From: Odiellus spinosus
Taxonomy: Eukaryota; Arthropoda; Arachnida; Opiliones; Phalangiidae
Direction of reading: 5' to 3'
DNA: 64,000 nucleotides
Assembly: GCA_963920705.1 (NCBI GenBank)
Contig: OY987227.1
Span: 7,791,602 to 7,855,601, forward strand
Shown here: piece by piece, positions 1-49,081 of the stretch
How the letters are laid out: the number at the start of each line of letters is the position of its first letter
Numbering within the stretch: the stretch's first letter is position 1
Notes under the pieces: model-generated
The model's input: the letters and a program-made list of their open reading frames with translations, nothing else
What the model was told of the DNA's origin: nothing
The model's database searches: none
Translations under genes and position numbers: made by a program

Positions 1-436
1 CAAGTTATCACGTGACAAACGCGCCAAGTTATCACGTGACAAACGCGCCAAGTTATCACGTGACAAACGCGCCAAGTTATCACGTGACAAACGCGCCAAG
101 TTATCACGTGACAAACGCGCCAAGTTATCACGTGACAAACGCGCCAAGTTATCACGTGACAAACGCGCCAAGTTATCACGTGACAAACGCGCCAAGTTAT
201 CACGTGACAAACGCGCCAAGTTATCACGTGACAAACGCGCCAAGTTATCACGTGACAAACGCGCCAAGTTATCACGTGACAAACGCGCCAAGTTATCACG
301 TGACAAACGCGCCAAGTTATCACGTGACAAACGCGCCAAGTTATCACGTGACAAACGCGCCAAGTTATCACGTGACAAACGCGCCAAGTTATCACGTGAC
401 AAACGCGCCAAGTTATCACGTGACAAACGCGCCAAG
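1..436. repeat. 24-bp satellite array (cut by window edge)
   Basis: Eighteen almost perfect head-to-tail copies of a 24-bp unit that contains the palindrome TCACGTGA followed by CAAACGCGCC. The array begins at base 1, so its true length is unknown. It ends near 436, where the unit decays into TTTCGCCTGACAAAAAAGCG. Because 24 is divisible by 3, one frame stays open for 153 codons as an 8-residue repeat (T-N-A-P-S-Y-H-V). I do not think it is translated. Each unit has one CACGTG core (E-box type) and several CpGs. Confidence 0.97.
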
Positions 437-490
437 ATTTCGCCTGACAAAAAAGCGCGAAATATCATTTTGAATATGAATAAAGTAAGC

Positions 491-14521: not shown

Positions 14522-15711
14522 AAAGAACAACAGCAACTCCCCATAAGAGTCTGGGTCCACGTAATGTTAAAAATTTTCGTCTCTTTTATGATAAATTCGT
14601 ATTATATTATTAAAATAGGGTAGTTGGGGGATAATTTCAAGCTAAAATTCGAGCTCACAACTGTAAATTTTGGGAATTACAACGAATGGAAGGTTTCTTC
14701 CATAATGTAAAGAATAGGAAGAATCTATGACTTCCGTGCCGGATATGAAAGCCTTCCCCCACACGAAAATCTTGAACGGTTATTATTTTAGATTCATAAT
14801 TATGTTAGGAAAATATTAGGAAAGAATTATTTTGTAACTGTCACGGGTATAGTGCTGGCGGCAAAATGAAATTCGTATATTTTTGGTCTACTATGCCTCG
14901 AAATCCTCGAAAACGCCTGTAGAAGTGTTCCACTTGTCAAGCATTCATGCAGTAGGCTTTTGCTAGCTTTACAGGGGCCGTGCAAAGACTATATAGCTTA
15001 CTTGAATAGTCTTTGGTGTATAAGAAACTCGAAAAATAAATAGAGAAATCATACCAATTAGAAGATACTGGAGTAGTATCTTTAATTTTTATTTCATATT
15101 AAACAAAACACACTTGTATAAAACGGACAAATTATTCATTTAACGCTGTATAAAACGGACAAATTATTCATTTAACGCTAAGGTTTTCTACGTTTAACGT
15201 ATGTCTGGTAGTTCAAGCTCAGTGGCATCTTCTCACACTACACGCAATTTTGACTGGTACCAACTGCCTCGATCTTCATGGCGACGATAACCAAGATACC
15301 AGATTACGCTGCTAACGTGAACACAAGTACCTATCGTCAAACTACCACCTTTGCAATTGCAATACCAGCCTTTAATGGCATTTGCACCTGTCCCGTTCGG
15401 TACATAACGAATTAGAGCTTGGTGAACAGCTGAGGTGGAAAATTGACCAGGCACGCGTATACGAATTAAGTCATGTTCAACTTTGGACACTTCGACGCTG
15501 AAAGAGCCGGATTTCTCTATAGTCAACGCCACATAAGATTCAGCGCGTTTCGTTTTAAAGTCGCTCATTACCACCTCACGTACATCACTTTCACGAAGTA
15601 CAGGGAAGTCTTGAAATTCACTATCCTCAATTCGTTGCCATTTAGACGGTTTGCGAAGCAGATTATCGCGCTCAACTACTTCCTTAAGAGGATTTTCTTT
15701 CGTAGAGACTG
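14522..15711. repeat. Left inverted arm (1190 bp)
   Basis: Contains the last 157 codons of the transposase (minus strand), its stop at 15233, a 32-bp direct duplication, and a possible AATAAA signal (complement of TTTATT at 15088-15093). It is longer than the right arm by exactly the 32-bp duplication. Confidence 0.95.
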
Positions 15712-17422
15712 CCAGCATTTTTTCGACGGAGTCTTCCCAGGAACCTTTAAGATGTAACTCCGGGTGGTAGGCGTTCAACAGCGCAGCAGCAATTTGAAGA
15801 AGTTCCGGAACTAATGGTAACATATGCACAGGTATACGGTTTTGAAAAAAACGATACACCGTCTGCAAATGCCAATTCCTAACTTCAACCGGCCACCTGA
15901 GGTACGTTACTTGTCGGGAACGATTAACTTCTTGCGTGTTTACTTGCTTCTCGCCTTTAGACAAGAACGAAGGCATTTGTAAATCCACACCCAGTTCAGT
16001 CAGTACGCTGTTGGAGTCTCGAAAACCGCGGTCTGCCAGTACAACGTCACCAACTTGAAAGAAAGACTGGAGTTCTTCTCTCTTTTTTATAGAATGGTTT
16101 AAAATGCGCGCGTCGTTATTGCGGCCATTAGCAAAGTAGGGTCCGATTATATCTATTATGTAACCCGTAGTTGTTATCATTAACATTGGCTTGAGGATAT
16201 GCTGGCCTTTGTGCACACAGAAGGATTTGTGAAGAACGGTATAGTCCTTGGATCTTCTAACCTTGATATAGGTGCCATCTACAATGGTAATAAGACAATT
16301 AGGCTTGTTGTTAGCAAAGAGTTTTACTGCTGCTCCAGATTGATGGTTTGTTATCAGATTGTCACGTGATAAGTGTTGCAGGCCAAAATGATGTGGCACG
16401 AAATGCTCCGATAAAGCCATAATAACCGCTTTTACCGTGTTTGATACCGATCTTTCAGTTAAATGAAATAAAGTTGATAACACCTTATTGGAGATACCCA
16501 ATCGTAATTTCACCAATAATACTGCTAGAGCTGTCTTCGACGAACAGCATCTGATGGTACGAATAATGTCCTCAATAGTCGAATGCAACTCTAGGAACTC
16601 GTGCAGGGACAATGAAGTTAATACTTTACAGTCTTCATCACTTTGTATGAAGTTGTCAAAGCTCGGCGTCCGTAGGTCGTTAACACATTTCCTGAGGTCC
16701 TGTAATAGTTGCTCAATGTCCGTGGCAGTCATAATGGTTGATCTAGCGGAAACCTGAATTCCAGCAATTATTTCGGTGGGAAGCTCTCCGTTAACGAGAT
16801 GCGTGGAGCACATTCGGTTGTCCCGATGAATAAATATGGCTCTTTCCACAAATATACTTGTTCTCACTTCGGCTTTTACCCTGGTTCGTGTACTAACACC
16901 GCAAATGAAGCAAGTCTTTGGCAGGGGCCGAACACAACTGTGCTTTATGGAAATAGTGTTTGATGACGTACGCTTTCGTGGTAATTGCGACGTTGATGGC
17001 TGAGGTATTGGTGACGGTGATGGATTAGATACTGTGGACTTTGTTGGTTCAGGTACTGTTGACGTTGATGGATTAGATACTTGCGTCATTTGTCTTCGTT
17101 TTTGTGGTGAAGACGATGACGTTGAAGAGCCATGATCACTACTGAAGGACGATTTGCTAGTATTTAAGAACGTTTGAAACTTTCGTGACAGACCCGAGCA
17201 CTTTAAACAAATCTTCGTTGTTTTGCTATTAATTACAAGTGGTAATAACCCTTTACTAAAACGAAGAAAACGAGCAAAGCCAGCCTTTACGTGAGTGCCT
17301 ATACCTCTACTTGTACTATTGGTAACTTTCCGATTGCACGCGTAACATGTATTTGGAGCCATCTCCAAATTCCAAGTGACTCTCACATTGATGTTATTGA
17401 TAAGGAAAGTTCTTAAGATCAT
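15233..17422 (-). CDS. Transposase: zinc fingers, DDE_Tnp_4-type core, SWIM finger
   Basis: A 729-residue intact frame. Residues 21-75 hold paired Cys motifs (C26, C29, C72, C75), probably a zinc-binding module. Residues 90-155 are a Ser/Thr/Pro-rich linker. C171, C174, C205 and H208 form a C2CH pattern resembling a short THAP finger. A helical region (about 275-345) precedes the catalytic core, where D382 (Val-Asp-Gly-Thr-Tyr), D464 (Leu-Ala-Asp-Arg-Gly-Phe) and E513 (Arg-Trp-Pro-Val-Glu) fit the DDE triad of the DDE_Tnp_4 family used by PIF/Harbinger and ISL2EU transposons. Residues 688-702 are C-x-C, nine residues, C-x-H: a SWIM zinc finger. By family knowledge it would bind the element ends in the nucleus and cut and join DNA. 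Met21 (17362), just before the first finger, is an equally likely start. All key residues are present, so it may be functional. The exact superfamily is uncertain. Confidence 0.93.
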   Translation of the reverse strand: MILRTFLINNINVRVTWNLEMAPNTCYACNRKVTNSTSRGIGTHVKAGFARFLRFSKGLLPLVINSKTTKICLKCSGLSRKFQTFLNTSKSSFSSDHGSSTSSSSPQKRRQMTQVSNPSTSTVPEPTKSTVSNPSPSPIPQPSTSQLPRKRTSSNTISIKHSCVRPLPKTCFICGVSTRTRVKAEVRTSIFVERAIFIHRDNRMCSTHLVNGELPTEIIAGIQVSARSTIMTATDIEQLLQDLRKCVNDLRTPSFDNFIQSDEDCKVLTSLSLHEFLELHSTIEDIIRTIRCCSSKTALAVLLVKLRLGISNKVLSTLFHLTERSVSNTVKAVIMALSEHFVPHHFGLQHLSRDNLITNHQSGAAVKLFANNKPNCLITIVDGTYIKVRRSKDYTVLHKSFCVHKGQHILKPMLMITTTGYIIDIIGPYFANGRNNDARILNHSIKKREELQSFFQVGDVVLADRGFRDSNSVLTELGVDLQMPSFLSKGEKQVNTQEVNRSRQVTYLRWPVEVRNWHLQTVYRFFQNRIPVHMLPLVPELLQIAAALLNAYHPELHLKGSWEDSVEKMLAVSTKENPLKEVVERDNLLRKPSKWQRIEDSEFQDFPVLRESDVREVVMSDFKTKRAESYVALTIEKSGSFSVEVSKVEHDLIRIRVPGQFSTSAVHQALIRYVPNGTGANAIKGWYCNCKGGSLTIGTCVHVSSVIWYLGYRRHEDRGSWYQSKLRVV

Positions 17423-17512
17423 GGTTCAAACCAGATATTACAATTTTTTTAATGTTTATAAAAGCAGGTTTAATTATTTTTCGCCAACCTGGCTGGCAAA
17501 AAATATTAAAGA
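17423..17512. promoter_or_regulatory. Transposase 5' leader with imperfect hairpin
   Basis: This 90-bp stretch separates the transposase start from the inverted right arm, so any promoter or original 5' end must lie here or in the arm. It holds a near palindrome at about 17477-17507 (TATTTTTCGCCA, short spacer, TGGCAAAAAATA). That could be a remnant of an original terminal repeat or a breakpoint hairpin. Inference only. Confidence 0.35.
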
Positions 17513-17991
17513 CAGTCTCTACGAAAGAAAATCCTCTTAAGGAAGTAGTTGAGCGCGATAATCTGCTTCGCAAACCGTCTAAATGGCAACGAATTGAGGA
17601 TAGTGAATTTCAAGACTTCCCTGTACTTCGTGAAAGTGATGTACGTGAGGTGGTAATGAGCGACTTTAAAACGAAACGCGCTGAATCTTATGTGGCGTTG
17701 ACTATAGAGAAATCCGGCTCTTTCAGCGTCGAAGTGTCCAAAGTTGAACATGACTTAATTCGTATACGCGTGCCTGGTCAATTTTCCACCTCAGCTGTTC
17801 ACCAAGCTCTAATTCGTTATGTACCGAACGGGACAGGTGCAAATGCCATTAAAGGCTGGTATTGCAATTGCAAAGGTGGTAGTTTGACGATAGGTACTTG
17901 TGTTCACGTTAGCAGCGTAATCTGGTATCTTGGTTATCGTCGCCATGAAGATCGAGGCAGTTGGTACCAGTCAAAATTGCGTGTAGTGTGA
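17513..17991 (+). pseudogene. Duplicated C-terminal transposase fragment with SWIM finger
   Basis: Plus-strand inverted copy of the last 157 transposase codons (residues 573-729), from Val-Ser-Thr-Lys-Glu to the stop. The open frame continues upstream into non-homologous sequence to an ATG at 17452, giving a potential 179-residue protein that carries the SWIM motif but no catalytic core. If transcribed, it would be a core-less protein containing the SWIM region and might compete with or modulate the transposase. That is speculation; the simplest reading is a by-product of the inverted duplication. Confidence 0.85.
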
Positions 17992-18670
17992 GAAGATGCC
18001 ACTGAGCTTGAACTACCAGACATACGTTAAACGTAGAAAACCTTAGCGTTAAATGAATAATTTGTCCGTTTTATACAAGTGTGTTTTGTTTAATATGAAA
18101 TAAAAATTAAAGATACTACTCCAGTATCTTCTAATTGGTATGATTTCTCTATTTATTTTTCGAGTTTCTTATACACCAAAGACTATTCAAGTAAGCTATA
18201 TAGTCTTTGCACGGCCCCTGTAAAGCTAGCAAAAGCCTACTGCATGAATGCTTGACAAGTGGAACACTTCTACAGGCGTTTTCGAGGATTTCGAGGCATA
18301 GTAGACCAAAAATATACGAATTTCATTTTGCCGCCAGCACTATACCCGTGGCAGTTACAAAATAATTCTTTCCTAATATTTTCCTAACATAATTATGAAT
18401 CTAAAATAATAACCGTTCAAGATTTTCGTGTGGGGGAAGGCTTTCATATCCGGCACGGAAGTCATAGATTCTTCCTATTCTTTACATTATGGAAGAAACC
18501 TTCCATTCGTTGTAATTCCCAAAATTTACAGTTGTGAGCTCGAATTTTAGCTTGAAATTATCCCCCAACTACCCTATTTTAATAATATAATACGAATTTA
18601 TCATAAAAGAGACGAAAATTTTTAACATTACGTGGACCCAGACTCTTATGGGGAGTTGCTGTTGTTCTTT
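17513..18670. repeat. Right inverted arm (1158 bp)
   Basis: Reverse complement of 14522-15711 apart from one substitution and the missing 32-bp duplicate. It carries the transposase 3' end in plus orientation and the same 3' flank. The inner junction is at the GACAGTCTCT/CGTAGAGACTG boundary. Confidence 0.95.
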
Positions 18671-20036: not shown

Positions 20037-21740
20037 TAAGGCCCGGTTAGTACAGACTAATTAAGGCCCGGTTAGTACAGACTAATTAAGGCCCGGTTAG
20101 TACAGACTAATTAAGGCCCGGTTAGTACAGACTAATTAAGGCCCGGTTAGTACAGACTAATTAAGGCCCGGTTAGTACAGACTAATTAAGGCCCGGTTAG
20201 TACAGACTAATTAAGGCCCGGTTAGTACAGACTAATTAAGGCCCGGTTAGTACAGACTAATTAAGGCCCGGTTAGTACAGACTAATTAAGGCCCGGTTAG
20301 TACAGACTAATTAAGGCCCGGTTAGTACAGACTAATTAAGGCCCGGTTAGTACAGACTAATTAAGGCCCGGTTAGTACAGACTAATTAAGGCCCGGTTAG
20401 TACAGACTAATTAAGGCCCGGTTAGTACAGACTAATTAAGGCCCGGTTAGTACAGACTAATTAAGGCCCGGTTAGTACAGACTAATTAAGGCCCGGTTAG
20501 TACAGACTAATTAAGGCCCGGTTAGTACAGACTAATTAAGGCCCGGTTAGTACAGACTAATTAAGGCCCGGTTAGTACAGACTAATTAAGGCCCGGTTAG
20601 TACAGACTAATTAAGGCCCGGTTAGTACAGACTAATTAAGGCCCGGTTAGTACAGACTAATTAAGGCCCGGTTAGTACAGACTAATTAAGGCCCGGTTAG
20701 TACAGACTAATTAAGGCCCGGTTAGTACAGACTAATTAAGGCCCGGTTAGTACAGACTAATTAAGGCCCGGTTAGTACAGACTAATTAAGGCCCGGTTAG
20801 TACAGACTAATTAAGGCCCGGTTAGTACAGACTGATTAAGGCCCGGTTATTACAGACTGATTAAGGCCCGGTTATTACAGACTGATTAAGGCCCGGTTAT
20901 TACAGACTGATTAAGGCCCGGTTATTACAGACTGATTAAGGCCCGGTTATTACAGACTGATTAAGGCCCGGTTATTACAGACTGATTAAGGCCCGGTTAT
21001 TACAGACTGATTAAGGCCCGGTTATTACAGACTGATTAAGGCCCGGTTATTACAGACTCATTAAGGCCCGGTTATTACAGACTCATTAAGGCCCGGTTAT
21101 TACAGACTGATTAAGGCCCGGTTATTACAGACTGATTAAGGCCCGGTTATTACAGACTGATTAAGGCCCGGTTATTACAGACTGATTAAGGCCCGGTTAT
21201 TACAGACTGATTAAGGCCCGGTTATTACAGACTGATTAAGGCCCGGTTATTACAGACTGATTAAGGCCCGGTTATTACAGACTGATTAAGGCCCGGTTAT
21301 TACAGACTGATTAAGGCCCGGTTATTACAGACTGATTAAGGCCCGGTTATTACAGACTGATTAAGGCCCGGTTATTACAGACTGATTAAGGCCCGGTTAT
21401 TACAGACTGATTAAGGCCCGGTTATTACAGACTGATTAAGGCCCGGTTATTACAGACTGATTAAGGCCCGGTTATTACAGACTGATTAAGGCCCGGTTAT
21501 TACAGACTGATTAAGGCCCGGTTATTACAGACTGATTAAGGCCCGGTTATTACAGACTGATTAAGGCCCGGTTATTACAGACTGATTAAGGCCCGGTTAT
21601 TACAGACTGATTAAGGCCCGGTTATTACAGACTGATTAAGGCCCGGTTATTACAGACTGATTAAGGCCCGGGTTACAGACTGATTAAGGCCCGGGTTACA
21701 GACTGATTAAGGCCCGGGTTACACACTAATTAAGGCTATG
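20037..21740. repeat. 25-bp satellite array, two variant blocks
   Basis: About 68 head-to-tail copies of a 25-bp unit centred on TTAAGGCCCGGTTA. Block 1 (to about 20815, 31 units) has GTTAGTACAGACTAAT. One hybrid unit at 20816-20840 has GTTAGT with CTGAT. Block 2 (20841-21665, 33 units) has GTTATTACAGACTGAT, with two adjacent ACTCAT variants near 21050-21090. The last few units are shortened (CCCGGGTTACAGACTGAT), and the array decays by 21740. Confidence 0.97.
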
Positions 21741-24700: not shown

Positions 24701-25032
24701 GGGATAAAATAAAGATAAAAGACAATGGACACTACAGCCCTAGGCCTTGGCTATAAGTTACAATCTACGCAATTACCGTACACGCGAGTTTTACAAAATT
24801 TATCTTCTTTCGGGATTTATATACCAATATATACGGTGTTGGAGTCTACGTCACTTCGCCTTAGTATATAGGGCGCGGCAGGTAAAAATAAACTTCTGTT
24901 CATCTCTAATTATAATTAAAGTATAATAAAATATTTAACTAGTAGCCTAGCTTTGTAGGTGCTGGAAAAGGATAAATTAGGATGTATTGATTAGAGAGAA
25001 ATGGAAAATTTTATCATGAACTGGGGTTTTAA
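21741..25032. other. Gene-poor stretch
   Basis: I see no supported gene. GC rises at 24240-24700, where one frame (about 24254-24352, plus) reads as 30-odd plausible codons ending at TAG, but it has only a weak acceptor and no homology I recognise. Other short frames look like chance. Confidence 0.4.
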
Positions 25033-25475
25033 TTGACAGGACATATCATGACTGCGTGTGCCTTAATTTGACAGGGCATATCGTGACTGCGCGTGCCTTA
25101 ATTTAATTGACGGGACATATCATGACTGCGTGTGCCTTAATTTAATTGACAGGACATATCGTGACTGCGCGTGCTTTATTTTGACAGGACATATCGTGAC
25201 TGCGCGTGCTTTATTTTGACAGGACATATCGTGACTGTGCGGGCCTTAAATTGACAGAACATATCGTGACTGTGCGTGCCTTAATTTGACAGGACATATC
25301 GTGACTGCGCGTGCCTTAATTTGACAGGACATATCGTGACTGAGCGTGCTTTAATTGACAGGACATATCGTGACTGAGCGTGCTTTAATTGACAGGACAT
25401 ATCGGGACCGCGCGTGCCTTAATTTGACAGGACAAAGCGTAACTGCGCGTTCATTAAGTGACAGGTCATATCATT
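25033..25475. repeat. ~35-bp satellite array, 13 irregular copies
   Basis: Thirteen copies of a unit containing TTGACAGGACATATCGTGAC followed by TGCGCGTGCCTTAA. Spacing varies from about 33 to 40 bp because of indels in the TTAATTTAA joint. Copies toward the right end are more divergent, an older and less homogenised state than the other arrays. Confidence 0.93.
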
Positions 25476-38600: not shown

Positions 38601-39446
38601 ATAATCACTGAAAATCACGAAAGATTTTAAACGCGTATTAAAAAACAATCGAATCATATTTCTACGTGTACTTGGTCAGTATCGAGTGTGTAAAAGTCCA
38701 CGAATAAAATAAAATAGAAATCCATATCTACCTGGATCGAAAAAAACCAAAAAGAAATAGATGGAAAGCTCATCTTTAGAATTTAAAAATAAACTTTTTC
38801 TCTTTCTCCCCCGATTTCTTGTCGTTTCTGCTTAACCAAAACCAAACCAATGGCAAGGTTTTGGTTCGAGTTAAGCTCGCAAGAAGTTGAAACTTACGGC
38901 GGAATTATACGTAACGCTACACGGCGTAAGATAAAAAGTAGTTCTTGATAACTGTTCGTTAACTCGAGTTATAGAATACTCATTTTTTTATCGATTTTTG
39001 ACAGTCCCAAACCAATTTTTATTTTTATCCCTGGAAAATTCTGAAGTCGGCTCTTCCTCGTTATGAATTGAAAAAAGGAAAAAATAAGAAAAAATGTCTG
39101 AGAATATTTGAAAATATTCGTTATTAAAATTCCTTTTAAAGTACAGCGGAGGGTGGGGGATGGTCTGTACCGTCGAGAAATTCCATCCCATCGAATCTCG
39201 AATGTTTGTTTTTATGAAAAAAAATTGGAATCTCCGAATCGAGTTTTCCAAGGCGAAGAAGAAGAAAGAAAGAAATAAGATGGTTCGAGGGGCCACGGAA
39301 TAGTTACGCAACATAGAACTAGTTTTCGTTAAGTTGGCGAATCAAAACCTCGGCCAGTTTTTTGTGTTAACTCGATTTTTGCGTTGCAAACGTGCCGATT
39401 TGAATCTATAGTTAGCCTGCTGCATTTTAAACAGATAATCTAACAC
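38601..39446. other. Stretch without a recognised gene
   Basis: A minus frame at 38988-39314 is Phe/Ser-rich with no motif. Nothing else seen. Confidence 0.4.
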
Positions 39447-41585
39447 CAATAACGGCCATGAACGAAATACAGTACCGATAAAGGCCATGAACCAAACCTA
39501 GAACCTATAAGGGCCATGAACCAAACCTAGCACCTATAAGGGCCATGAACCAAACCTAGCACCTATAAGGGCCATGAACCAAACCTAGCACCTATAAGGG
39601 CCATGAACCAAACCTAGCACCTATAAGGGCCATGAACCAAACCTAGCACCTATAAGGGCCATGAACCAAACCTAGCACCTATAAGGGACATGAACCAAAC
39701 CTAGCACCTATAAGGGACATGAACCAAACCTAGCACCTATAAGGGACATGAACCAAACCTAGCACCTATAAGGGACATGAACCAAATCTAGCACCTATAA
39801 GGGACATGAACCAAATCTAGCACAGTCTATAAGGGACATGAACCAAATCTAGCACAGTCTATAAGGGACATGAACCAAATCTAGCACAGTCTATAAGGGA
39901 CATGAACCAAATCTAGCACAGTCTATAAGGGACATGAACCAAATCTAGCACAGTCTATAAGGGACATGAACCAAATCTAGCACAGTCTATAAGGGACATG
40001 AACCAAATCTAGCACAGTCTATAAGGGACATGAACCAAATCTAGCACAGTCTATAAGGGACATGAACCAAATCTAGCACAGTCTATAAGGGACATGAACC
40101 AAATCTAGCACAGTCTATAAGGGACATGAACCAAATCTAGCACAGTCTATAAGGGACATGAACCAAATCTAGCACAGTCTATAAGGGACAGGAACCAAAT
40201 CTAGCACAGTCTATAAGGGACAGGAACCAAATCTAGCACAGTCTATAAGGGACATGAACCAAATCTAGCACAGTCTATAAGGGACATGAACCAAATCTAG
40301 CACAGTCTATAAGGGACATGAACCAAATCTAGCACAGTCTATAAGGGACATGAACCAAATCTAGCACAGTCTATAAGGGACATGAACCAAATCTAGCACA
40401 GTCTATAAGGGACATGAACCAAATCTAGCACAGTCTATAAGGGACATGAACCAAATCTAGCACAGTCTATAAGGGACATGAACCAAATCTAGCACAGTCT
40501 ATAAGGGACATGAACCAAATCTAGCACAGTCTATAAGGGACATGAACCAAATCTAGCACAGTCTATAAGGGACATGAACCAAATCTAGCACAGTCTATAA
40601 GGGACATGAACCAAATCTAGCACAGTCTATAAGGGACATGAACCAAATCTAGCACAGTCTATAAGGGACATGAACCAAATCTAGCACAGTCTATAAGGGA
40701 CATGAACCAAATCTAGCACAGTCTATAAGGGACATGAACCAAATCTAGCACAGTCTATAAGGGACATGAACCAAATCTAGCACAGTCTATAAGGGACATG
40801 AACCAAATCTAGCACAGTCTATAAGGGACATGAACCAAATCTAGCACCTATAAGGGACATGAACCAAATCTAGCACCTATAAGGGACATGAACCAAATCT
40901 AGCACCTATAAGGGACATGAACCAAATCTAGCACCTATAAGGGACATGAACCAAATCTAGCACCTATAAGGGACATGAACCAAATCTAGCACCTATAAGG
41001 GACATGAACCAAATCTAGCACCTATAAGGGACATGAACCAAATCTAGCACCTATAAGGGACATGAACCAAATCTAGCACCTATAAGGGACATGAACCAAA
41101 TCTAGCACCTATAAGGGACATGAACCAAATCTAGCACCTATAAGGGACATGAACCAAATCTAGCACCGATAAGGGACATGAACCAAATCTAGCACCGATA
41201 AGGGACATGAACCAAATCTAGCACCGATAAGGGACATGAACCAAATCTAGCACCGATAAGGGACATGAACCAAATCTAGCACCGATAAGGGACATGAACC
41301 AAATCTAGCACCGATAAGGGACATGAACCAAATCTAGCACCGATAAGGGACATGAACCAAACCTAGCACCGATAGGGACATGAACCAAACCTAGTACCGA
41401 TAGGGACATGAACCAAACCTAGTACCGATAGGGACATGAACCAAATCTAGCACCGATGGGGACATGAACCAAATCTAGTACCGATGGGGACATGAACCAA
41501 ATCTAGTACCGATGGGGACATGAACCAAATCTAGTACCGATGGGGACATGAACCAAATCTAGTACCGATGGGGACATGAACAAGC
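39447..41585. repeat. 27/28/32-bp satellite array with an expanded middle
   Basis: About 70 copies built on AAGGGACATGAACCAAATCT plus AGCACCTAT. Order of blocks: 28-bp units with GGGCCATG then GGGACATG (to about 39815); about 32 units of 32 bp carrying an extra four bases, giving AGCACAGTCTATAAGGG (to about 40845); 28-bp units again, with CCTATAAG then CCGATAAG (to about 41365); and finally 27-bp units with CCGATAGGG then CCGATGGGG. Variants occur in contiguous runs, the signature of local amplification by unequal exchange. No open frame is maintained because unit lengths vary. Confidence 0.97.
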
Positions 41586-48119: not shown

Positions 48120-49081
48120 CCCTCTTCAGACGAGGCGTAATTAGCCGAGGTTTAATCAGATCTAACCAAGATTTACAGAGCCTTCTTTGTTCAATAAACG
48201 TCGTTTAAATATGATTAAAAACCCTCGGTTAAATCCGTATTAAAAACCCTCGGTTAAATCCGTATTAAAAACCCTCGGTTAAATCCGTATTAAAAACCCT
48301 CGGTTAAATCCGTATTAAAAACCCTCGGTTAAATCCGTATTAAAAACCCTCGGTTAAATCCGTATTAAAAACCCTCGGTTAAATCCGTATTAAAAACCCT
48401 CGGTTAAATCCGTATTAAAAACCCTCGGTTAAATCCGTATTAAAAACCCTCGGTTAAATCCGTATTAAAAACCCTCGGTTAAATCCGTATTAAAAACCCT
48501 CGGTTAAATCCGTATTAAAAACCCTCGGTTAAATCCGTATTAAAAACCCTCGGTTAAATCCGTATTAAAAACCCTCGGTTAAATCCGTATTAAAAACCCT
48601 CGGTTAAATCCGTATTAAAAACCCTCGGTTAAATCCGTATTAAAAACCCTCGGTTAAATCCTTATTAAAAACCTAGGTTAAATCTGATTAAAAACCTATG
48701 TTAAATCAGATTAAAAACCTCAGTTAAATCAGATTAAAACATCAGTTAAATCAGATTAAAAACCTCAGTTAAATCAGATTAAAACATCAGTTAAATCAGA
48801 TTAAAACATCAGTTAAATCAGATTAAAACATCAGTTAAATCAGATTAAAACATCAGTTAAATCAGATTAAAACATCAGTTAAGTCAGATTAAAACATCAG
48901 TTAAATCAGATTAAAACATCAGTTAAGTCAGATTAAAACATCAGTTAAATCAGATTGAAAACTTCGGTTAAAATCTGATTAAAAACCTCGGTTAAAATCT
49001 GTTCAAAAACCTCGGTTAATTCTGATCAAAAATCTCATTAAATCTGATAAAACCGGCTAATTACGCCTCATATGAAGAAGG
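48120..49081. mobile_element. Non-autonomous element whose interior is a satellite
   Basis: The ends form a long inverted repeat: left CCCTCTTCAGACGAGGCGTA with ATTAGCCG; right (complement) CCTTCTTCATATGAGGCGTA with ATTAGCCG. TA occurs on both outer sides (48118-48119 and 49082-49083), compatible with a TA target duplication. Nearly all the interior (48208-49040) is a tandem array. Just inside the termini the sequence AGGTTTAATCAGAT is the complement of array units (ATCTGATTAAAAACCT), so the satellite appears to have grown from subterminal DNA. No coding capacity. Confidence 0.8.
48208..49040. repeat. 25-bp then 22-bp satellite array inside the element
   Basis: About 18 near-identical 25-bp units (ACCCTCGGTTAAATCCGTAT with TAAAA) run to about 48665. 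They pass through a few intermediate units (ACCTAGG, ACCTATG) into about a dozen 22-23-bp units (ACATCAGTTAAATCAGAT). The last few units return to ACCTCGGTTAAAATCTG. The homogeneous left block and diverse right block suggest recent one-sided expansion. Confidence 0.96.

What the first reader, a model, noticed from the sequence alone, without database searches (positions are those of the whole stretch)
14522..18670. Transposon with its transposase 3' end duplicated as 1.16 kb near-identical inverted arms
Seen directly: arms 14522-15711 and 17513-18670 are reverse complements with one substitution and one 32-bp duplication difference, and the flanks outside are unrelated. Usual terminal repeats of DDE_Tnp_4-type transposons are short, so arms that include 157 transposase codons are unusual. 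I infer that the original 5' end was replaced by an inverted copy of the 3' end (aberrant transposition, or template switching during repair), giving a unit with two 3' ends. If both ends are recognised by the intact transposase, this could be a new mobile architecture.
Basis: partly seen in the sequence, partly recalled or inferred. Interest (0 to 1): 0.8.

Follow-up and report, generated by a model that had tools for sequence, protein, structure and literature searches.

The report
Palindromic Spy transposon with twin ends
The finding is one trimmed copy of a jumping gene whose full-length form is a nearly perfect 6-kb DNA palindrome with two transposase genes back to back and the same end on both sides; copies sit at many places in this genome, which suggests that one kind of end is enough for it to jump.

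Summary
In detail: window 14525-15711 and 17513-18667 are inverted copies (one substitution, one 32-bp duplication). The element is a Spy-type DNA transposon; it sits exactly between AAA and TTT, the Spy target, so no target duplication is expected. It is not a one-off. All 25 elements read end to end (24 of 34 loci of one capped search, and L040) carry the same 3' end at both termini. Inner junctions differ: 15 structures among the first 21. One copy, L040, is a complete palindrome of 5,961 bp: two intact 750-aa transposase genes head to head, joined without spacer at GAC|GTC, halves differing at 12 places. The window copy keeps one whole half and 1,155 bp of the other; its junction occurs at three loci with different flanks, so it moves as a unit. 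Best model: the master is a palindrome with two identical ends, and incomplete gap repair after excision trims the centre. Support for the repair steps is moderate (junction microhomology 1.4 against 0.7 bp; halves homogenised clearly in three elements). Mu killer and Galileo are the nearest precedents; seven paper searches listed no mobile family built on a complete palindrome.

The parts
14522..14524 (.). AAA, left half of the Spy target site (host DNA)
   Evidence: AAA and TTT bound 25 of 25 fully read copies
14525..17513 (-). complete half: 3' terminus, 3' untranslated region, transposase gene, 5' region up to the palindrome centre (half positions 1-2981, with the extra 32-bp unit and a 24-bp deletion)
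   Evidence: co-linear with the 2,981-bp half of L010; L040 has two such halves
14525..15711 (+). left arm (1,187 bp, with the extra 32-bp unit)
15115..15178 (+). 32-bp unit present twice; the extra copy is also in the left arm of L009, not in the right arm
15233..17422 (-). transposase ORF, 729 aa, DDE_Tnp_4 and (below its cut-off) HTH_Tnp_4; ends at an early stop at 15233-15235 compared with 750-aa ORFs of other copies; probable true start is the ATG whose first base is 17362
   Evidence: the start is inferred from homologues aligned
17455..17462 (.). TTTATAAA, TATA-like sequence in the 5' region (function inferred)
17469..17510 (.). imperfect hairpin with a stem of 19 pairs, whose base is 3 nt from the palindrome centre (folded on the copy in L010, RNA parameters)
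17512..17513 (.). junction: palindrome centre (..AAAGAC) joined to position 1155 of the second half, with 1 bp of microhomology
17513..18667 (+). right arm (1,155 bp): the outer part of the second half, with about the last 157 transposase codons
17452..17991 (+). open frame of 179 aa holding the duplicated C-terminal part of the transposase (SWIM-like); same early stop as the main ORF
   Evidence: no Pfam match; SWIM-like by motif (recalled), and homologue P0006 is named SWIM-type domain-containing by a source
18668..18670 (.). TTT, right half of the Spy target site (host DNA)

Best explanation
This is a deletion derivative of a palindromic Spy transposon that moved recently. SHOWN: a complete form exists, two 2,981-bp halves joined head to head at GAC|GTC, each half carrying the 3' terminus, the transposase gene and its 5' region, so both ends of the element are the same 3' end. 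SHOWN: the window copy holds one full half and the outer 1,155 bp of the other, and the same junction occurs at three loci with different flanks. SHOWN: 25 of 25 fully read copies lie between AAA and TTT. INFERRED: the transposase pairs two identical 3' ends, cuts the element out and inserts it between AAA and TTT. INFERRED: when the excision gap is copied back from the sister chromatid, both sides copy inward and are joined before they meet at the centre, giving ever new inner junctions. INFERRED: because either side can use either end as template, one half can be copied onto the other, which keeps some masters palindromic. INFERRED and least certain: the founder palindrome arose by a strand switch near the hairpin at the 5' end of an ordinary Spy.
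For: Ends: AAA|GAACAACAGC...GCTGTTGTTC|TTT at 25 of 25 fully read copies; chance for one copy about 0.001 from base composition. Structure: 24 of the 34 loci of the arm search were read end to end and all 24 have two inverted 3' ends; three more of the 34 show a pair of inverted arms in the listing itself; seven are not known. L040, found through the 5' region, is a complete palindrome with two intact 750-aa ORFs; its halves differ at 12 places and share one minority variant, 6 being private to each side, as expected if they were identical when it inserted. Centre: 40 loci with the 5' region were scored; at 39 of 40 the sequence beyond it is inverted sequence of the same half, of differing extent. 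Junctions: 15 structures among the first 21 copies; microhomology 1.8 bp on average at 15 joins against 0.69 for random joins, P 0.0004, or 1.4 at 20 joins if joins with inserted bases count as 0, P 0.004. Copying between halves: 24 minority variants shared between the two sides of one element against about 4.5 expected by shuffling; 1 of 5,000 shuffles reached it. Movement as a unit: window junction on C3, C1 and C18 with different flanks; the junction at half position 1727 in six fully read copies with different flanks.
Against: Only one complete palindrome was read, and its halves are not identical. The repair steps are inferred from junctions only, and they rest on few elements: without L016 the microhomology falls to 1.16 at 19 joins, P 0.035, and without L026, L020 and L025 the excess of shared variants is gone (8 against 4.3; 402 of 2,000 shuffles reach it). 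15 of 25 elements share no minority variant between their sides. A first microhomology count gave no excess (0.86 against 0.69); it was set up wrongly, counting overlapping bases twice. Two of the 40 loci with the 5' region are single-ended as far as read: L032 ends at half position 2980 in unrelated DNA, L048 after 72 bp of the second half. L032 could be a relict of a non-palindromic form, although AAA does not adjoin its break. No empty target site was found in the DNA on hand. Selection: loci were found by an arm or by a 5' region and only the 40 best candidates of each search were scored, so other forms would be missed.
Confidence: 0.8

Rival explanations
1. There is no palindromic master. 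The ancestor is an ordinary Spy with long (about 0.6 kb) terminal repeats, and each long-armed copy was made separately when repair of one end copied the other end too far inward (as proposed for Galileo).
For: Spy terminal repeats of up to 691 bp are reported (PMC11304231, section read). A second Spy family in this genome has arms of about 615 bp. Galileo is thought to extend its repeats in this way (PMC3573991, passages).
Against: One and the same centre, GAC|GTC without spacer, is found in several structures. L040 is complete. Of the 40 scored 5' regions no single junction beyond them recurs at more than three loci, whereas an ordinary element would show one constant junction with the terminal repeat.
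Confidence: 0.13
2. A one-off rearrangement at this locus, not mobile in this form.
For: The junction looks like a repair join.
Against: The same junction stands at three loci with different flanks, and two of them (window, L009) also share the 32-bp duplication, a 24-bp deletion and at least five substitutions.
Confidence: 0.03
3. Assembly or sequencing artefact (foldback reads, collapsed or chimeric repeats).
For: Palindromic reads are a known artefact (recalled). L033 and L034, on two small contigs, share a flank, and L075 holds a 99.9% inverted duplication of 1,471 bp, so some duplicated or doubtful assembly is likely.
Against: The arms differ from each other and between copies; the outer ends fall exactly at AAA and TTT with two different flanks at 25 loci; foldback artefacts would not repeatedly turn at GAC|GTC.
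Confidence: 0.03

Closest known systems
Spy transposons (PHIS superfamily), e.g. cgSpy of the bee Colletes gigas (PMC11304231: abstract, outline, sections 6, 14 and 21, and passages seen; PMC4482050: passages seen; the original 2014 description is recalled, not held)
   Same: DDE transposase of about 700 aa, insertion between AAA and TTT, no target duplication reported, terminal inverted repeats that can be long (cgSpy 467 bp).
   Different: Reported repeats are 5-691 bp and lie around a transposase gene; here the repeat can take in the whole element, with two head-to-head transposase genes and two identical 3' ends.
Galileo of Drosophila (P superfamily), extended and recombinant terminal repeats (PMC3573991, passages seen)
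   Same: Repeats up to about 1.25 kb that recruit internal sequence, explained there by repair that copies from the other end; chimeric copies.
   Different: Different superfamily; the recruited parts described are spacer sequence beside the repeats; no complete palindrome with two intact transposase genes in the passages seen.
Mu killer of maize (PMC3440606, abstract and passages seen)
   Same: Two ends both taken from the same (mudrA-side) end of MuDR, and an inverted partial duplication of about 1.3 kb of the transposase gene.
   Different: Described as one locus that silences MuDR, by hairpin or antisense RNA; not a mobile multi-copy family, and an element of another superfamily.
Tn10 and Tn5 composite transposons (recalled)
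   Same: Two inverted copies of one element moving together by two equivalent outside ends.
   Different: There whole insertion sequences flank a cargo; here the two halves are fused without spacer and no inner ends are left.

Membership tests
Spy (PHIS superfamily) | insertion between AAA and TTT | tested here: met
   25 of 25 fully read copies
Spy (PHIS superfamily) | no target site duplication, shown by an empty site | tested here: inconclusive
   no repeat beside the ends is visible at the copies listed; no empty site among the fetched DNA
Spy (PHIS superfamily) | DDE transposase of about 700 aa | tested here: met
   PF13359 at E 1.2e-18, 729 aa; 750 aa in other copies
Spy (PHIS superfamily) | terminal inverted repeats | tested here: met
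   their length (1,155/1,187 bp, whole halves in L040) and the second gene lie outside what is reported (5-691 bp)
Spy (PHIS superfamily) | transposase falls in the Spy clade of a tree | not tested
   no named Spy reference protein was on hand; the ten homologues found are unnamed or bear rotifer or oyster names
ISL2EU | AT target duplication and a second ORF with a YqaJ domain | tested here: not met
   bases beside the ends are AAA and TTT; the only other long frame of the window element carrying element sequence in sense is the duplicated C-terminus, without Pfam match
PIF/Harbinger | TWA target duplication and a Myb/SANT second ORF | tested here: not met
   as for ISL2EU
Galileo / P superfamily | THAP-domain P-type transposase | tested here: not met
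   Pfam lists only DDE_Tnp_4 and HTH_Tnp_4 at E up to 1

The most novel reading that the evidence does not exclude
The autonomous master is itself a perfect palindrome, and the palindrome is what is propagated: the transposase works with two identical 3' ends, and after excision the gap is refilled with either half as template, so the two genes evolve as one. Such an element would be a self-copying DNA palindrome that corrects its two halves against each other.
Probability: 0.4. Interest if true: 0.78.

Novelty: new variant of a known kind. Interest (0 to 1): 0.62.

Why it matters
Perfect palindromes of several kilobases are expected to be unstable (established knowledge), yet here one is a full-length form of a very young transposon family (0.33% difference from the family majority over all halves read). 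The copies are a natural series of experiments: they indicate that one kind of Spy end is sufficient; that 334 bp of it may be enough on one side (L068, if it was trimmed before it inserted); and where palindromes break and rejoin in an animal genome. That bears on the design of Spy gene-transfer vectors and on how palindromes persist. A transcript that crosses the junction would fold into a long double-stranded RNA against the transposase, as proposed for Mu killer, so the same structure may also silence its own family (inference).
Full report
WHAT WAS CLAIMED AND WHAT IS THERE. The arms are real: 1,187 and 1,155 bp, inverted, with one substitution and one 32-bp tandem duplication between them. 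The transposase ORF (15233-17422, minus) matches DDE_Tnp_4 at E 1.2e-18. The ends read AAA|GAACAACAGC ... GCTGTTGTTC|TTT. Spy transposons of the PHIS superfamily are reported to insert between AAA and TTT without a target duplication (PMC4482050 and PMC11304231, passages, section).

OTHER COPIES. A search of the window's own genome (443 Mb) with the left arm gave 44 matches at 34 loci; only 40 of 1,190 first-look candidates were scored. I read 24 of the 34 loci end to end: the window, L009-L028 and L029-L031. All 24 have the 3' terminus at both ends in inverted orientation, with AAA and TTT outside. Of the ten others, three show a pair of inverted arms in the listing itself; seven are not known. 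The inner junctions differ: 15 structures among the first 21 copies, if L024 and L025, which have an extra deletion each, are counted with their sisters. The 25 fully read elements, L040 included, measure 3.0 to 6.0 kb.

THE COMPLETE FORM. Several copies keep the point where the two halves meet..AATATTAAAGAC|GTCTTTAATATT.., without spacer. This predicted a full palindrome. A search with the 150 bases beside that point found it: L040, 5,961 bp, half positions 1-2981 followed by 2981-1, with AAA and TTT outside, and two intact 750-aa transposase ORFs facing away from the centre. Its halves differ by eleven substitutions and one 1-bp deletion. Against the family majority each half has six private differences and they share one, which fits two halves that were identical when it inserted. 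It is the only complete palindrome that I read.

NO ORDINARY 5' END WAS FOUND. Of the 40 loci scored, 39 continue beyond the 5' region with inverted sequence of the same half, and no single junction recurs at more than three of them; L033 and L034 share a flank and are probably one locus. The exceptions matter: L032 breaks at half position 2980 into unrelated DNA, with no second end within 5.5 kb, and L048 breaks after 72 bp of the second half, with none within 3.3 kb. Both look like broken palindromes, but L032 does not exclude a non-palindromic relict. For 28 of these 40 loci only 390 bases around and beyond the centre were fetched at first; two of them (L048, L068) were extended, so most of their outer ends were not seen.

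THE WINDOW COPY MOVES AS A UNIT. L009 on C1 has the same junction, the 32-bp duplication in the same arm, a 24-bp deletion and shared substitutions. L038 on C18 has the same junction with a third flank, and its match shows no 24-bp gap. Six fully read copies share the junction at half position 1727 at different sites (L012, L017, L022, L024, L028, L031). In L012 a 45-bp arm deletion sits on the other half than in L017, L022, L024 and L028, as after an exchange between the inverted arms.

HOW IT PROBABLY WORKS. Joins carry more microhomology than chance: 1.8 against 0.69 bp over 15 joins, P 0.0004. Five joins, four of them with inserted bases, had been left out; with them the mean is 1.4 over 20, P 0.004, and without L016 it is 1.16 over 19, P 0.035. 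An earlier count, wrongly set up, gave 0.86 over 14. Minority variants are shared between the two sides of one element more than by shuffling, 24 against about 4.5, reached by 1 of 5,000 shuffles and 0 of 2,000. This rests on L026 (7 shared, 0 and 1 unshared), L020 (5) and L025 (4): without all three it is 8 against 4.3, reached by 402 of 2,000 shuffles; 15 of 25 elements share none. Both facts are what repair of the excision gap from a palindromic template would give: each side copies inward from an identical end, the two sides are joined before they meet properly, and sometimes both sides have copied the same half. The 5' end of each half can form a hairpin of 19 pairs whose base is 3 nt from the centre. 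L019, L025, L030 and L066 have a second centre 47 bp away that looks like a strand switch in that hairpin, and L046, L047 and L055 keep part of it. A strand switch there is my best guess for the founder.

GENES. Six of the 25 fully read copies have a transposase ORF of at least 700 aa with the N-terminus: window (729), L010, L015, L019, L030, and L040 twice. The window and L009 carry an early stop near the C-terminus in both arms, so that change was probably once copied from one half to the other. The model of the protein shows the DDE core.

A SECOND FAMILY. L027 with L073 holds a copy of a second Spy family, about 25-30% different in DNA where it aligns, again with AAA|GAAC...GTTC|TTT and 3' sequence at both ends (arms of about 615 bp, 98% alike in L074). 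It is multi-copy: 40 of 1,045 candidates were scored, 39 of them at 98-100% besides the query itself. The copies read (L027/L073, L074, L075) hold only the C-terminal part of the transposase. Two identical 3' ends are thus not limited to one family.

COMPARISON AND NOVELTY. It is a Spy by target site and transposase type; the clade was not tested. Its repeats lie outside the reported 5-691 bp. Galileo lengthens its repeats by recruiting internal sequence, and Mu killer has two ends of one kind with an inverted piece of the transposase gene. The listings show no account of a mobile family whose full form is a palindrome with two intact transposase genes; that is a limited search. Hence a new variant of a known kind.

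Noticed in passing
window 1-451, 20037-21736, 25029-25472, 39437-41581, 48214-49019: Long tandem arrays in one 64-kb window (five rows at score 300 or more; periods 24, 25, 35, 32 and 25; 13 to 71 copies; 87-99% matches).
   Followed up: no
L027:9765-10000 with L073; L074:3319-4824: A second Spy family with arms of about 615 bp and the same kind of ends (AAA|GAACAACCC), multi-copy and 98-100% alike.
   Followed up: partly
L027 with L073, inside the second-family copy: An insertion of about 1.3 kb with ends AGTGGCGGCGCC...GGCGCCGCCACT inside the transposase remnant, probably another DNA transposon.
   Followed up: no
L075 (C17:3390800-3394200): A 1,471-bp inverted duplication at 99.9% that includes second-family sequence; a host palindrome or an assembly artefact.
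   Followed up: no
L032 (C274) and L048 (C8): Halves broken at or near the palindrome centre and joined to unrelated DNA, with no second end within 5.5 and 3.3 kb.
   Followed up: partly
L019:2526-2580, L030:2324-2380: Two palindrome centres 47 bp apart, as from a strand switch in the 5' hairpin, shared by several copies.
   Followed up: partly
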